From Chitinophagaceae bacterium IBVUCB1 (lineage in GTDB: Bacteria; Bacteroidota; Bacteroidia; Chitinophagales; Chitinophagaceae): DNA of 64,000 bases. The position numbers and the translations under genes are program-made. The DNA lies in assembly GCA_002127285.1 (NCBI GenBank), contig NFUW01000002.1, forward strand, positions 1,078,744 through 1,142,743, given 5' to 3'. The notes under the pieces were generated by a model. The model saw only the letters and a list, made by a program, of their open reading frames with translations. It was not told the DNA's origin and ran no database searches. Below, piece by piece: positions 4,014 to 61,460 of this stretch (position 1 is the stretch's first letter; every line of letters begins with the position of its first letter).

Positions 4014-5453
4014 ATGCAAATAAAAAATACATTAAACTTAATCTTACTATCCATAATACTGTTGCTACTCGTGTCAACAGGGTTTTGGTACAATATTAAC
4101 GAATGGGATGAAGCAAGACATGGTGCCAACGCATTCTTTATGGCGCAAAACGGTGATTATATCAACCTGTACTTTGACAACCTGCCAGATACATGGATTG
4201 CAAAGCCACCCCTGCTGACGTGGATGATAGTTGGCAGTTATAAACTATTCGGCTACAACGAATTTGCATTAAGGTTACCAACCTATATCTGTGTGCTGAT
4301 TTTCTTTTCCGTGATGTATCGCTTTGTATGCCAGTACACAAAACCGGTGCATGCATTTTTATGTTGCCTTATAACCGCATCGTGCAAACTGGTAATAGGC
4401 TGGCACATTGGCTTGACAGCCGACTATGATATGATACTGGTTTTGATGTTGCTACTGTCAGTATATTATTATGCCCGATACATAGATTTTGACAAGCAAA
4501 ATGCCATCTACCTGTCTGCGCTATTCATTGGGTTGGCATTTTATTGCAAGGGTACGGCTGCATTTGTATTGCTACCAGGCATGGCTTTGTATGCCATGAT
4601 AAGGGGAAAGATGAAAAACCTGCTAAGGTCTAAACAATTATGGATAGCCCTTGGTGTACTGATAGCCATTATTGGTAGTTGGTTGGGCTTGCTATCCGTT
4701 TACGGTCTGGCATATCAATCCTCTTACTACAATAGTAATAATGCCATCACTACCCTATTCTTACACGATACCATCCGCAGGCTGGCTGATAGCAGTTTTG
4801 AAGACAAAAGCACACCAGATAAGTTTTTCGCATTGACCGTACTGGATGTAAGGCTGAATGTATGGAACTACCTGCTGTACTTGTTGTTGGCAATCGGGCT
4901 TGTAAGATGGTGGCAACAACGAAAACATACCCTATCATTGATAAAAGATGAGCAGAACAGGATGGTATTATTATCACTGTGCCTGATAGTGCCTTTTACG
5001 TTGTTGATGTCTTTCTCTGAAACTAAACATGATTGGTATCTGATACCTGCCTACATTTTTATACCACCCATTATTATGGATGGTATTATACGCATAGGCA
5101 AGCGCACCAAAACGGCTTATTATGTTTTCGGCATCGTACTGACATTCACTTTTACAAGGCATACATTGTACTTGTACAACCAACCGAAGAGCCTGCATAC
5201 ACACCTGAACAGGCAAAACCCTTATCTGAAAGACTGCCCCAAATTAGTAACCATCAGCATACCACGCCACCACGTGTATCTATACCTGCAATGGATGGAC
5301 TTGCATACAGACAGGGTGCAACACGCAGAAGAACTGAACAAATACAAGGGGCGCACTTTATTGATAGACCAAGGACAAATGCAAGAAGTGAAACCCGAAC
5401 AGATAACCATACTACAACGCTTTGATGAATTTATACTGGCACGTATTAATTAA
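4014..5453 (+). CDS. GT39/ArnT-like membrane glycosyltransferase
   Basis: 479-residue polytopic inner-membrane protein of the GT-C fold (dolichyl-phosphate-mannose mannosyltransferase / ArnT superfamily). These enzymes transfer a sugar from a polyprenyl-phosphate donor to a lipid or protein on the periplasmic side. The first periplasmic loop carries EWDEARHGANA (Asp32-Glu33-x-Arg35), the conserved catalytic DExR motif, followed by KPPLLTWM (about residues 64-71). About ten to twelve hydrophobic segments follow, then a soluble C-terminal tail. The acceptor cannot be told from sequence. Its stop overlaps the stop of the convergent TonB-receptor gene by 8 bases. Confidence 0.85.
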   Translation: MQIKNTLNLILLSIILLLLVSTGFWYNINEWDEARHGANAFFMAQNGDYINLYFDNLPDTWIAKPPLLTWMIVGSYKLFGYNEFALRLPTYICVLIFFSVMYRFVCQYTKPVHAFLCCLITASCKLVIGWHIGLTADYDMILVLMLLLSVYYYARYIDFDKQNAIYLSALFIGLAFYCKGTAAFVLLPGMALYAMIRGKMKNLLRSKQLWIALGVLIAIIGSWLGLLSVYGLAYQSSYYNSNNAITTLFLHDTIRRLADSSFEDKSTPDKFFALTVLDVRLNVWNYLLYLLLAIGLVRWWQQRKHTLSLIKDEQNRMVLLSLCLIVPFTLLMSFSETKHDWYLIPAYIFIPPIIMDGIIRIGKRTKTAYYVFGIVLTFTFTRHTLYLYNQPKSLHTHLNRQNPYLKDCPKLVTISIPRHHVYLYLQWMDLHTDRVQHAEELNKYKGRTLLIDQGQMQEVKPEQITILQRFDEFILARIN

Positions 5454-56877: not shown

Positions 56878-56942
56878 TTGAGCCATTCAGCAATTCAGCC
56901 ATTGAGCCATTCAACAATTGAGCCATTCAGCCATTGAGCAAT
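56878..56942. repeat. Short tandem repeats downstream of purB
   Basis: Several imperfect copies of CATTGAGCCATTCAGC and close variants. A similar phrase lies near 15165-15195, just before sucC. Confidence 0.6.
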
Positions 56943-58282
56943 TAATAAACCCCTACATAACTATGCGGCGTTATCGCTTTCAGTTCTTTCTTCAATGCCG
57001 CGCTAATCTTCAGCCCGTCTATAAACTTATGCAGTGTTTTTTGCGTGATGCCCTCTTTGCCCCTTGTCAGTGCTTTGAGTGCCTCGTATGGCTGCGGATA
57101 GTTTTCTCTGCGCAAGATGGTTTGAATAGCCTCTGCACACACCGCCCAATTATCGTCAAGGTCTTGTTTTATTTTATCACGGTTCAGCAATAATTTGCCG
57201 AGTCCTTTATCTAATGAACGCAGGGCAAGGAAGCTATGCGCCAACGGCACACCCACATTGCGCAGTACGGTGCTGTCTGTCAAATCTCTTTGCAGGCGGC
57301 TGATGGGCAGCTTGGCACTCAGGTGTTCGTATATGGCATTGGCTATGCCGAGGTTGCCCTCTGCATTTTCAAAATCTATGGGGTTTACCTTATGCGGCAT
57401 GGCAGACGAACCCACCTCTCCCTCTTTGGTTTTTTGTTTAAAGTATTCGGTGCTGATGTAGCTCCACACATCGCGGGCAAAATCTATCAGTATCGTATTG
57501 ATACGCTTCAACGCATCGAACTGGGCAGCTATGTTGTCGTAATGCTCTATCTGCGTAGTGTATTGCATACGCTCCAGCCCCAGCTTATTGTTTACAAAAT
57601 CGTTGCCAAACTTTACCCAATCCGTTTTGGGGAAGGTAACTTTGTGTGCGTTAAAATTGCCCGTAGCCCCGCCAAACTTGGCAGCAAAAGGCACATGGCT
57701 CAGTTGCAGCAACTGTCCTTCCAGCCGCTCTACAAACACCATCCATTCTTTGCCCAGCGTGGTGGGCGATGCGGGCTGCCCGTGTGTACGTGCCAGCATG
57801 GCTATGCCTTTCCAGTCTTTGGCCTGCTTGCGCAGGGCGATGATGATATTTTGCAAGGCAGGCAGGTATTGCTCTTCCAACGCTTCCTTCCATAGCAGGG
57901 GTATGGCGGTGTTATTTACATCTTGGCTCGTAAGCCCGAAGTGTACCCACTCTACCGCATCGCCCGCGCCCAGCGCTTTCAGCTTTTCTTTCAGAAAATA
58001 CTCTACCGCTTTCACATCATGATTGGTAGTGCGCTCTGTCAGCTTTATTTGTTGTGCATCGTCTTCTGTAAAGTTCTCGTATATAGCACGCAGCTTGGCA
58101 GGCTTAACGCTTGCAGGCAGCTTAAAAATCTTTTTCTCGGCCAGGAAGAGGAAATACTCTACCTCTACACGTACACGATAACGAATAAGTCCGAACTCGC
58201 TGAAATAAGGCGCCAGCGATGCCACTTGGCTACGGTAGCGGCCGTCTATGGGACTGATTGCCGTTAATGCTGTTAACTCCAT
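56942..58282 (-). CDS. purB: Adenylosuccinate lyase
   Basis: 446 residues from the ATG at 58282 (MELTALTAISPIDGRYRSQV), the conserved start. It cleaves SAICAR and adenylosuccinate in purine synthesis. The fumarase-superfamily signature GSSAMPHKVNPIDFENAEGN is intact, with TSQDVNNTAIPLLWKEAL and ARTHGQPASPTTLGKEWMVF upstream of it. The 42 upstream codons in frame are non-coding. It is divergent from the HAM1/SIR2 island, with only 160 bases between them. Confidence 0.97.
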   Translation of the reverse strand: MELTALTAISPIDGRYRSQVASLAPYFSEFGLIRYRVRVEVEYFLFLAEKKIFKLPASVKPAKLRAIYENFTEDDAQQIKLTERTTNHDVKAVEYFLKEKLKALGAGDAVEWVHFGLTSQDVNNTAIPLLWKEALEEQYLPALQNIIIALRKQAKDWKGIAMLARTHGQPASPTTLGKEWMVFVERLEGQLLQLSHVPFAAKFGGATGNFNAHKVTFPKTDWVKFGNDFVNNKLGLERMQYTTQIEHYDNIAAQFDALKRINTILIDFARDVWSYISTEYFKQKTKEGEVGSSAMPHKVNPIDFENAEGNLGIANAIYEHLSAKLPISRLQRDLTDSTVLRNVGVPLAHSFLALRSLDKGLGKLLLNRDKIKQDLDDNWAVCAEAIQTILRRENYPQPYEALKALTRGKEGITQKTLHKFIDGLKISAALKKELKAITPHSYVGVY

Positions 58283-58420: not shown

Positions 58421-58428
58421 TTAGTTTT
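58421..58428 (+). promoter_or_regulatory. Possible -7 box of the HAM1-SIR2 operon
   Basis: TAGTTTTG, matching TAnnTTTG, 17 bases before the HAM1 ATG. The -33 box is not convincing. Confidence 0.4.
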
Positions 58429-58445
58429 GAGTATCAAAATCACAC

Positions 58446-58994
58446 ATGGACATACGATTTCTCTCTAGCAACAAATTTAAAATTGAAGAGACTAAGAAGA
58501 TTCTTTCCAAATCGGGTATAAATATCATACCATTAAGTATCAAAATTGAGGAGATACAAAGTATTGATACAAATAGTTTATTGAGAGACAAGCTAATAAA
58601 AGCCTTCAAAATAGTCGGCAAACCAATATTCGTAGAGCACTCTGGTTTGTATATAGAAGATATTAATGGTTTCCCTGGTGGCCTTACACAAATATTTTGG
58701 GATACAATAGAAGCTGATAAATTTTGTGAACTATTTAAAAATGCTTCAAATAAAAAAGTAAGGGCTGAAACCAACATCGCATATTGTGATGGAAGAACTT
58801 TTCATTTTTTCAAAGGCCAGATTAATGGGACAATTCCTCTAAAACCCAAAGGTTCAAGAGATTTTCAATGGGACTGTGTTTTCATACCTGATGGCTATAA
58901 ACAAACCTTTGCAGAAATGGGAGATAAAAAGAATGATATTTCAATGAGAAAAATGGCTCTTGACAATTTTTTAGAATTTTTAAAGAAAATGTAA
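58446..58994 (+). CDS. komB: HAM1/RdgB-like protein, probable dITP sensor (KomB-like)
   Basis: 182 residues of the HAM1 (non-canonical purine NTP pyrophosphatase) family. [20 protein letters not shown] is the family start; [18 protein letters not shown] and [20 protein letters not shown] are the nucleotide-site motifs. Key differences: the catalytic Asp of DDSGL is replaced by His65 (EHSGL), FGYD reads FQWD, and SHR reads SMR166-168. These fit a protein that binds but does not hydrolyse dITP. Its TAA overlaps the SIR2 ATG. Together with the SIR2 and deaminase genes it resembles KomB of the Kongming anti-phage system. It could also be a diverged but active enzyme. Confidence 0.82.
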
Positions 58995-59785
58995 TGGTTT
59001 CTGATTTAAAGCATGCTATAAAATCTCGTAATACCATCCTATTTGTTGGAGCTGGATTATCGGCAACATTGGGGCTCCCAAATTGGCAACAATTGATTGA
59101 TAAAATGGCAAAAGATTTAAATTTTGAACCTTCAGTGTTCAGCACCTTAGGTGGATATTTAGAGCTGGCCGAATATTACATTTCGATAAAGGGAATTGGT
59201 CCGCTGAGAAGTTGGATGGATAGAGAGTGGCACTCCTCATCAATAAACATTAAAGACTCTAATATTCATAAATGTATAGTTGACTTAAACTTCCCTATAA
59301 TATATACTACAAACTATGACAGATGGATCGAAAATGCCTATGATTACTACTGTAAACCTTACATAAAAATTAGTGACGTACATAACCTAACTGAGATAAG
59401 AGACAGTACCAATACACAAATAATTAAGTTCCATGGAGATTTTGATAATGACCCATCAATAGTACTTTCAGAAAGCAGCTACTTTGAAAGACTAGACTTT
59501 GAAACACCTCTTGACATTAAATTGAGAGCTGATGTATTAGGCAAATCAATATTATTTATTGGTTATAGTCTATCAGATATTAACTTAAGGTATCTATTGT
59601 ATAAACTTAACAAGCTTTGGAAAACATCAACAAATGTTTCTCACAAGCCCACATCCTATATATATTTAACCAGACCAAATCCAGTACAAGAAAAAATACT
59701 ATCAGATAGAGGCATTACCCCTATTATATCTGAGGTTGACGATGCGAAAGAGGGGCTCTTAAAGTTTCTTGAAAAACTACGTTAA
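58994..59785 (+). CDS. komC: SIR2-family NADase, probable anti-phage effector (KomC-like)
   Basis: 263 residues made of one SIR2 domain. [20 protein letters not shown] (NAD site), [15 protein letters not shown] (Asn107), [20 protein letters not shown] (His147) and [20 protein letters not shown] are intact, so the active-site Asn and His are present. Stand-alone SIR2 domains of this type in defence systems degrade NAD+ and stop growth of infected cells. It is coupled to the HAM1 gene (TAATG), which supports a stable sensor-effector complex, as in KomBC. It ends overlapping the convergent deaminase gene by 4 bases. Base use is A+T rich, unlike the neighbours. Confidence 0.85.
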
Positions 59786-60746
59786 TTAGAGAAGCTATAC
59801 TTTTTTTGAATTGAATTCATAGTATCTAAGACATCAATTCTTTGGGTAAGACGATTGAATAACTCATATTCTTGTGACAACGAAAAAGCATGAATTGAAG
59901 GGTTATCACTACATATTACAAAAGGGACTCCTTTCGATAAAAATTTATTGACAGGATGTTGTTCAATTTTTTTCACACCTCCTGTCAAATAATTACTTTG
60001 AATACAAAGCTCAACGCAGATATCTCTTGATATTAATAAATCTAAGACACCATCATTATCAACAACACTTATACAATGGCCAATTCTATCTGCATCAAAA
60101 TAATTTATAGCCTGTAATACATTTTCAACACTATTAATCTCACCAGCATGAATTGTAACTCCTAATCCAAACTCATATTTTGCTCTCTTAAAAAAAAATC
60201 GAGATCGTTTGGTACAATAAAAGTCTCATTCCCAGCTAAGTCAACGCCTACAATAGCCTTACGATATTCAACATTAACTAATGCATCAAGTATTTTGTTC
60301 AAAAACAATACATCTAAATTTTCTCTCGATACTGTCAAAATAAACCTACAATCAATAGGCATAATATTATTATCAACAACTGATATAAACCAATTAAGAC
60401 ACTCTTCAACCGAAATATTATTATTATTCATTATTGTTAACGGTGAATATCTAAATTCCACATATTCTACACCATCCTTTACCAGCTCCAATAAAGAGTT
60501 TTTTACCATTCCTTCAAATTGCGAATATCCAATTGGTAGTAGTTTCAATAACTGCCAAGGCTTAAAATAATCTACAATATTTTCAACGGGTCTATTTATA
60601 AATAAATCGGAAGGAAATGAGAATTCTTTTGGAACAACTATTTTGTTCTCTTTAATCAAGTTTTCAATAAATTTCATTGAAAATGCACCACTCAAATGAC
60701 AATGGAGCTCTCTTTTCCTTAAACTCCTAAAATATTCAATTTCCAT
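59782..60746 (-). pseudogene. komA: Adenosine deaminase-family protein (KomA-like), frameshifted at T9
   Basis: Two frames together make a full-length adenosine deaminase of about 320 residues. The first 183 residues carry RKRELHCHLSGA (His15, His17), YVEFRYSP and GVDLAGNE. A run of nine T (minus strand; 60190-60198) shifts the frame to a stop at 60162. The other frame then continues FGLGVTIHAGE, DRIGHCISV, VELCIQSNYL and FVICSDNPSIHAFSLSQEYE, with the metal Asp of SDN (the second Asp of the usual DD is Asn). Ten or seven T would join them. KomA makes deoxyinosine nucleotides for the KomBC sensor. Whether the break is real needs checking. Confidence 0.8.
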
Positions 60747-61140
60747 ATAATCCCAACAGTCTCGTTTATTATTTGTATATAGAATGTCTTAGCACTCCGT
60801 TCATGACAAATATAATAAAAATTGAACGTTTTATTATCCGAAAAAACGAAGTAGTTCTATGCTAAGATTTATAGCTTTTAGCTTCTAAATATGAGCTTTT
60901 CTCAATAGTATATTCCCTTACAAAACTACATACCATCAACACCAACACAGCATCCTATACTGTTGCTGTACTGTTATTTTATGTTCTATTCTCTTCTATC
61001 CTCTCCTTGGTTAAGCAGTGGTTGAGCTTTGGTTAACCCACGGTTGATAACACAATGATTACCAACACCTCCCAATGCAACAGGAAAATTGTTATTTATC
61101 TTTTGTTTTTGTAAGTGTCTGTTAAGTGTTCTAAAAATAA
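60747..61140. other. A+T-rich spacer beside the KomA-like gene
   Basis: About 390 bases without a credible gene. It must hold the minus-strand promoter of the deaminase gene; no match to the TAnnTTTG box is clear near 60770. Contains scattered GGTTAA words. Confidence 0.4.
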
Positions 61141-61460
61141 AACCGTTCACTGTTCCGAACACTGAACACTTGAACACCCTGAACACCCATGTTATCGTGA
61201 GATTGCTTCGTGCCTCGCAATGACGCGAGTAGAAAAACAAAACCGTTCACTGTTCCGAACACTGAACACTTGAACACCTTGAACACCCATGTTATCGTGA
61301 GATTGCTTCGTGCCTCGCAATGACGCGGGCAGGTTTGCAATGACGCGAGTAGAAAAACAAAACCGTTCACTGTTCCGAACACTGAACACTTGAACACCTT
61401 GAACACCCCCATGTTATCGTGAGATTGCTTCGTGCCTCACAATGACGCGAGTAGAAAACT
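61141..61460. repeat. Three direct repeats of about 100 bp
   Basis: Copies start at 61141, 61241 and 61361 with AACCGTTCACTGTTCCGAAC. Each has the phrase GAACACTGAACACTTGAACA and ends with GAGATTGCTTCGTGCC and GCAATGACGCGAGTAGAAAA. Copies 2 and 3 are separated by a 20-base partial duplication of the GCAATGACGCG part. The GAGATTGCTTCGTGCCTCGC phrase is a dispersed repeat seen in many Bacteroidota genomes. No coding potential. Confidence 0.85.

What the first reader, a model, noticed from the sequence alone, without database searches (positions are those of the whole stretch)
58446..60746. Kongming-like anti-phage locus: HAM1 sensor, SIR2 NADase and adenosine deaminase
Three gene families sit in a 2.3-kb A+T-rich island between purB and repeats. 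Kongming uses a deaminase (KomA) plus a phage nucleotide kinase to make dITP, which a HAM1-like protein (KomB) senses to free a SIR2 NADase (KomC). All three are here. KomB and KomC overlap by TAATG and KomA is convergent, an arrangement that may differ from known loci. Family calls come from motifs seen in the sequence; the system name is established knowledge applied by inference.
Basis: partly seen in the sequence, partly recalled or inferred. Interest (0 to 1): 0.92.

Follow-up and report, generated by a model that had tools for sequence, protein, structure and literature searches.

The report
Kongming defence locus with broken deaminase
This is a bacterial anti-virus alarm of the known Kongming type, in which an inosine nucleotide is thought to trigger a protein that destroys the cell's NAD+; its sensor and killer genes are intact, its signal-making gene lies in an unusual place and is interrupted, and relatives suggest that such alarms can be wired to different signal makers.

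Summary
The three gene families are present and are Kongming genes, not metabolic look-alikes. KomB (58446-58994) and KomC (58994-59785) are 56% and 62% identical to those of an E. coli KomABC operon whose KomB matches the solved KomB chain. KomB has His where the genome's housekeeping HAM1 has Asp. The deaminase is KomA-like: 59 of 72 KomA-invariant residues, against 32-39 in eight generic deaminases.

The layout is odd too: komA is convergent with komBC, while 16 of 16 intact relatives are komA-komB-komC on one strand. The ground beside purB carries other, partly defence-like genes in same-genus genomes.

Of 80 KomC-related loci, 14 have intact komA, 2 remnants, 59 no komA but komB, 5 komC only. 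Two komBC pairs follow RADAR rdrAB, a dITP maker. KomBC thus looks like a dITP receiver with exchangeable generators, a hypothesis. Whether the window's locus works is unproven.

The parts
58446..58994 (+). komB: HAM1-like dITP sensor, 182 aa, with VEHSGL in place of the housekeeping DDSG motif (His65)
   Evidence: Pfam Ham1p_like E 7.1e-36; PDB 8zsg KomB 236.7 bits; signature compared
58994..59785 (+). komC: SIR2 NADase-type effector, 263 aa, N107 and H147 kept; start overlaps the komB stop in TAATG
   Evidence: Pfam SIR2_2 E 3.5e-26; PDB 8zsf KomC 329.4 bits; residues
60162..60746 (-). komA, first part: deaminase N-terminal part, ends at a stop soon after the change of frame
   Evidence: Pfam A_deaminase 2-172, E 3.8e-11; KomA profile 152 bits
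59782..60225 (-). komA, second part: open stretch in another frame with the HAGE, RIGH and CSDNPSIH motifs; no usual start codon before 59988
   Evidence: Pfam A_deaminase 181-293, E 7.7e-28; KomA profile 175 bits; ORF list; open stretch
60190..60198 (-). run of nine T (A9 on the + strand) at which the komA frame changes; with the next base it reads TTTTTTA, like a slippery heptamer
   Evidence: the only one of 21 A/T runs of 8 or more in 241.6 kb that splits a frame
59782..59785 (.). TTAA shared by the stop codons of komC and komA (tail to tail, 4-base overlap)
58421..60760 (.). A+T-rich island, G+C 0.315
56942..58282 (-). purB (adenylosuccinate lyase by its sequence), left flank of the island, conserved in 13 of 14 other genomes of the genus

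Best explanation
The locus descends from a Kongming anti-phage system. By analogy with E. coli KomABC, KomA would deaminate dAMP, a phage nucleotide kinase and host NDK would bring the product to dITP, dITP would bind the HAM1-like protein KomB, and KomB would switch on the SIR2 protein KomC, which destroys NAD+ and stops the phage by abortive infection. Shown here by sequence: komB and komC are intact members of these families; the deaminase is of the KomA family; komA is convergent with komBC and changes frame at a T9 run. Inferred: as read, the locus holds an intact receiver and effector whose own signal maker is off, through mutation, through phase variation at the T9 run, or only through an error of the assembly. 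It would then fire if dITP came from elsewhere or if some full-length KomA were still made.
For: PDB: KomB 236.7 bits, KomC 329.4 bits; the next HAM1-SIR2 pair (9v0g) scores 100.1 and 136.2. E. coli operon L132: KomB 101/179, KomC 156/250, KomA parts 60/179 and 63/134 identical, and the L132 KomB matches the solved chain at 412.5 bits over its full length. His in place of the HAM1 Asp in 77 of 78 Kom-like rows that have a residue there. KomA-invariant columns 59 of 72, generic deaminases 32-39. KomA-profile scores 152 and 175 bits for the parts, 87-152 for 14 whole generic deaminases. Best plasmid hit of the second komA part is the KomA of a Vibrio KomABC plasmid, E 3e-32, next best 1e-18. Insertion site beside purB with partly defence-like cargo in the genus.
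Against: komA is interrupted as read. The layout differs from all 16 intact relatives. The three genes are together in only 14 of 80 KomC-related loci. No komA was seen with the three other KomC relatives from the order and phylum samples (L004, L005, L088; about 1.5 kb of flank each). No activity was or could be measured.
Confidence: 0.85

Rival explanations
1. komA is intact in the living cell; the change of frame is an error of the assembly at a 9-base homopolymer. The locus is then an ordinary complete Kongming system with a convergent komA.
For: Nine-base homopolymers are a usual place of indel errors (general knowledge). All active-site motifs are kept in both parts and the second part keeps 37 of 41 KomA-invariant residues. 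The 16 intact relatives are open in one frame.
Against: Homopolymer errors are not general in this assembly: of 21 A/T runs of 8 or more in 241.6 kb only this one splits a frame. The control is small: ten of the other 20 runs lie 30 or more codons inside an open stretch of 200 or more codons, and only three of the 20 are nine long.
Confidence: 0.35
2. komA is really lost: a recent interruption, with komBC living on as a pair, as in many relatives.
For: 59 of 80 KomC-related loci have komB but no komA, and two more keep only a C-terminal remnant of komA upstream of komB. komA presence changes at least 9 times on a KomC tree. 18 genomes without intact komA gave at most 158 bits to a KomA profile, 540 for the control.
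Against: The rest of komA shows no other stop or frame change, so any loss would be recent. The counts lean on two well-sampled groups (Pantoea and Stutzerimonas), and one of the 61 loci is cut off by its contig end.
Confidence: 0.4
3. komA is expressed through slippage of RNA polymerase or ribosome at the T9/TTTTTTA site, or is switched on and off by changes of tract length (phase variation).
For: The site is T9 followed by A, like a slippery heptamer; the second part lies in the frame that a backward slip of one base would reach.
Against: 16 of 16 relatives are open in one frame; two of the 15 whose DNA I looked at have T7 at the same codons and read straight through. No RNA structure follows the site (z = +0.59).
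Confidence: 0.2
4. The genes are ordinary nucleotide-salvage genes that happen to lie together.
For: Pfam and NCBIfam name the HAM1 protein and the deaminase by their metabolic families.
Against: All NCBIfam scores lie below the curated cut-offs. The genome has a separate housekeeping HAM1, 55/168 identical. PDB, signature and profile results above.
Confidence: 0.02

Closest known systems
Kongming (KomABC) of E. coli: operon L132 (strain SA31-1); PDB 8zsf, 8zsg, 8zsh, 8zsi, 9xvc; Zeng et al. 2025, Science 388:eads6055 (seen only as a reference, and through passages of PMC12948488 and PMC12774641)
   Same: KomB 56%, KomC 62%, KomA parts 34% and 47% identical; komB-komC junction overlapping in the same way
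   Different: komA is convergent instead of upstream on the same strand, and is interrupted by a change of frame
HAM1-SIR2 pair of PDB 9v0g and related entries (names of molecules only; no paper seen)
   Same: HAM1-like protein with VEH motif and a SIR2 protein in the same entries
   Different: Much more distant: 100.1 and 136.2 bits, against 236.7 and 329.4 for the Kongming chains
komBC behind RADAR rdrAB (L021 Rahnella, L012 Enterovibrio)
   Same: KomB and KomC of the same families, same order and strand as in the window
   Different: A RADAR ATPase and deaminase stand upstream instead of KomA; the window's genome has no RdrB match, though that search rang in none of its 14 control genomes
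Thoeris ThsA (best PADLOC hit of KomC)
   Same: SIR2 NADase-type domain, E 1.2e-33
   Different: KomC is 263 aa and matches only positions 10-216 of the 478-position ThsA profile; its neighbours are HAM1 and deaminase genes

Membership tests
Kongming | KomC: SIR2 protein of the KomC family with the NADase residues | tested here: met
   329.4 bits to 8zsf; H147 aligns with H146, which is mutated in 9xvc
Kongming | KomB: HAM1-like protein with the changed active-site motif | tested here: met
   236.7 bits to 8zsg; EHSG instead of DDSG. That the lost Asp is catalytic in HAM1 enzymes is recalled
Kongming | KomA: deaminase of the KomA clade next to komBC | tested here: met
   59 of 72 invariant residues; profile scores; CSDNPSIH and short C-terminus, by descent only
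Kongming | A komA that can give full-length protein as read | tested here: not met
   Two frames, change at T9. I therefore call it a Kongming locus by descent, not a complete Kongming system
Kongming | Gene order komA-komB-komC on one strand (usual, perhaps not defining) | tested here: not met
   Convergent komA here; 16 of 16 intact relatives are co-directional
Kongming | dITP-triggered NAD+ loss and phage protection | not testable with these tools
   Needs biochemistry and phage assays
RADAR | RdrA ATPase and RdrB deaminase | tested here: inconclusive
   No RdrB match in the genome, but the profile rang in none of the 14 control genomes; it does ring in four genomes. No rdrAB in the island itself
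Thoeris | SIR2-SLOG ThsA with a TIR gene | tested here: not met
   SIR2 part only; Pfam finds HAM1 and deaminase next to it, no TIR

The most novel reading that the evidence does not exclude
KomB-KomC is a self-standing alarm for inosine nucleotides that evolution plugs into different dITP makers: KomA, RADAR's RdrB, or none of its own. RADAR would then, in some strains, be the first half of a signalling pathway that ends in NAD+ loss, not only a poisoner of the nucleotide pool. The window would show an intermediate: komA moved to a separate convergent unit and silenced, perhaps reversibly, at a T9 tract, while komBC stays intact.
Probability: 0.3. Interest if true: 0.78.

Novelty: new variant of a known kind. 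Interest (0 to 1): 0.55.

Why it matters
Kongming is a recent system whose signal, dITP, can come from more than one enzyme. If the sensor-effector pair works with several dITP makers, or with none of its own, then komBC-only loci (59 of the 80 loci seen, against 14 complete ones) are a large, little-noticed set of anti-phage alarms. The open question of how (d)ITP made by RADAR stops a phage would get a direct test in strains that carry rdrAB-komBC. For the window itself, a convergent and interrupted komA lets one ask whether komBC alone protects.

Tried and rejected
Rejected: a metabolic cluster (NCBIfam scores under cut-offs; separate housekeeping HAM1). Rejected: Thoeris (SIR2 part only). 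Weakened: a conserved programmed frameshift (16 of 16 relatives open in one frame; no RNA structure).

Led nowhere: KomC kin in viral contigs (0 confirmed); one weak phage record (26.5% identity). KomC in a sample of 396 genomes of the order gave the window's own, L004 and L005; a sample of 395 of the phylum gave the window's own and L088 (the samples overlap). No komA was seen in these three loci, but only about 1.5 kb of flank was held. The second komA part in 395 genomes of the class gave 14 places, the window's own and 13 others of at most 75.9 bits, none with komB or komC in the short loci. None of the 13 same-genus stretches beside purB holds komB or komC; one (L131) holds a distant deaminase-like gene, 29% identical over 136 aa. 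RdrB of five other loci (L133, L157, L158, L159, L160) had no komBC in the stretch held, so the RADAR link rests on two loci that were found from the KomC side. No structure prediction was run, since solved chains of KomB and KomC exist at close range.

Literature: searches. Four papers hold 'Kongming' with 'defense' and 'phage'; of these I read passages of two, PMC12948488 and PMC12774641. I also read passages of PMC9994260 and PMC13174449. In PMC12948488 the RADAR and Kongming passages are separate and are not linked. I saw no paper in these listings that links RADAR with Kongming, but the library holds only open-licence papers and I did not see the original Kongming paper.

Full report
What is there. 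Three genes occupy an A+T-rich stretch (G+C 0.315 against 0.43) beside purB. komB (58446-58994, +) and komC (58994-59785, +) overlap by one base in TAATG. On the other strand a deaminase gene runs towards them; its stop codon and that of komC overlap in TTAA at 59782-59785. The deaminase is in two frames: 60746-60162, and a stretch open from 60225 to 59782. Pfam sees profile positions 2-172 in the first and 181-293 in the second. The frame changes at a run of nine T, 60190-60198. The second part has no ATG, GTG or TTG before 59988, so as read neither part gives the whole active site.

Family. The best solved relatives by sequence are KomB of 8zsg (236.7 bits) and KomC of 8zsf (329.4 bits); the next HAM1-SIR2 pair, 9v0g, scores 100.1 and 136.2. 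An E. coli operon, L132, holds komA-komB-komC, and its KomB matches the solved chain over its full length at 412.5 bits. Against that operon the window's proteins are identical at 101/179 (KomB), 156/250 (KomC), 60/179 (KomA, first part) and 63/134 (KomA, second part) positions. KomB carries VEHSGL where the genome's own HAM1 has ADDSGI. Of 80 aligned rows, one is that housekeeping protein and one is gapped there; of the other 78, 77 have His (76 EH, 1 DH) and one has Tyr. That the replaced Asp is catalytic in HAM1 enzymes is recalled, not tested. KomC keeps N107 and H147; H147 aligns with H146, mutated by the depositors of 9xvc.

The deaminase is of the KomA kind. Over the 72 columns invariant in ten intact KomA proteins the window keeps 59 (22 of 31 in the first part, 37 of 41 in the second); eight generic deaminases keep 32-39. 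It has CSDNPSIH and a short C-terminus like the KomA rows. With a profile of 15 KomA proteins, the window not among them, its parts score 152 and 175 bits; 14 whole generic deaminases score 87-152. In the plasmid collection its second part hits the KomA of a Vibrio KomABC plasmid at E 3e-32, the next best at 1e-18.

Layout. In the 16 loci with intact komA (14 of the 80 loci, plus L103 and L132) the order is komA-komB-komC on one strand, with komA in one frame. The window is the only convergent case seen. Samples of 396 genomes of its order and 395 of its phylum gave three other KomC relatives (L004, L005, L088), none with komA in the short stretch held. L004, from the same order, has a weakly kinase-like gene, then komC, then komB.

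Site. Of 14 other genomes of the genus, 13 have the purB gene. Beside it they hold other genes; none has komB or komC. Where the far flank also aligns (L119-L123) the gap is 1.25-3.0 kb, G+C 0.30-0.39. Of eight proteins scanned from the 4.5 kb beside purB, four hit Pfam: DUF4062 (L122), putAbiC (L127), KAP NTPase (L128) and HNH (L124, several genes away from purB); the last three also have PADLOC hits, weak for L127 and L128. DUF4062 proteins are reported as NADases of the Swarozyc defence system (PMC13174449, passages). The other four had no hit. So the place is a turnover site with partly defence-like cargo.

The break in komA. Among 21 A/T runs of 8 or more in 241.6 kb (nine stretches of the genome plus the window) only this one splits a frame. 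The control is modest: ten of the other 20 runs lie well inside long open stretches, and three are nine long. Two homologues have T7 at the same codons and read straight through. No RNA structure follows (z = +0.59). Error, recent loss and a switch all remain open; no reads or sister strains could be examined. The genome shows no PF00962 match other than the two parts of komA at E <= 0.001, so no second deaminase of that family stands in.

komBC without komA. Of 80 KomC-related loci, 14 have intact komA; 2 have remnants that match only the last part of KomA (L022 profile 291-321, L046 300-342 of 347), directly upstream of komB; 59 have komB and komC without komA; 5 have komC without komB. tblastn with ten KomA proteins over 69 loci without intact komA found only those two remnants. 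One of these loci (L055) is cut off upstream, and in three (L019, L053, L055) komB itself is split or partial, as it is in L017, which has komA. The 80 are the best of 112 and are rich in Pantoea and Stutzerimonas, so the counts are not independent. Eighteen genomes of such loci gave at most 158 bits to a KomA profile, against 540 for the positive control L018; four gave no match; L071 was not held. On a KomC tree of 54 rows komA presence needs at least 9 changes (quick tree, 35 near-copies left out). komA is thus lost or gained often while komBC persists.

A second dITP maker. In Rahnella (L021) and Enterovibrio (L012) komB-komC follow rdrA-rdrB on the same strand (PADLOC RdrA 768 and 1144 bits, RdrB 1060 and 1480 bits); the stretches L162 and L161 show the same. 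The two lie apart on the KomC tree. RdrB turns dATP into dITP, which builds up during infection (PMC9994260, passages), and dITP is the signal reported for KomB (PMC12948488 and PMC12774641, passages). The simplest reading is that RADAR feeds KomBC there. Against it: only two cases, both found from the KomC side; five other RADAR loci show no komBC; defence genes cluster anyway.

Verdict. The window holds a Kongming locus by descent, with intact sensor and effector, a convergent komA, and an interruption that leaves its function open. The wider point, an exchangeable signal maker, is a hypothesis with modest support and a clear test.

Noticed in passing
L021 2-6795 (Rahnella) and L012 3-6789 (Enterovibrio); stretches L162 and L161: RADAR rdrA-rdrB directly followed by komB-komC on the same strand, with no komA: a possible dITP maker wired to a dITP sensor.
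   Followed up: partly
L019 4415-5383, L046 6943-7890, L014 3276-4247: A 5'-nucleotidase gene stands next to komBC or komABC in three different genera; the L019 protein is Pfam PF06189 and PADLOC candidate PDC-S08, the other two are related to it by phmmer.
   Followed up: partly
L004 947-2846: From the same order as the window: a weakly kinase-like gene, then a KomC relative (44% identical), then a KomB relative, i.e. the reverse order of komB and komC.
   Followed up: no
L006 4925-6858, L007 2712-4563, L008 1775-3551: The nearest relatives of the window's KomC (64-67% identical, Bacteroidetes MAGs) have no HAM1 gene beside them but a shared phosphotransferase-like (APH) gene just upstream; the best HAM1 match elsewhere in these genomes is 31-32% identical.
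   Followed up: partly
Ground beside purB in same-genus genomes, L119-L131: A turnover site: unrelated, often A+T-rich genes, among them DUF4062 (L122 1956-3275), putAbiC (L127 2528-3625), a KAP NTPase (L128 1703-3763) and, several genes away, an HNH nuclease (L124 4853-5809).
   Followed up: partly
L022 about 5281-5385 and L046 about 5300-5437: Remnants of the C-terminal end of komA directly upstream of komB: komA decays while komBC stays.
   Followed up: partly
L017, L019, L053, L055: komB is split or partial beside an open komC; left as found.
   Followed up: no
61120-61460: About three direct copies of a roughly 120-base intergenic repeat beside the island, seen by eye in the sequence; parts recur beside purB in related genomes.
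   Followed up: no
L132 4925-7250: This E. coli KomABC operon lies among prophage-type genes; 80 of 5426 E. coli genomes match a related komBC DNA query, of which only this one was opened.
   Followed up: no
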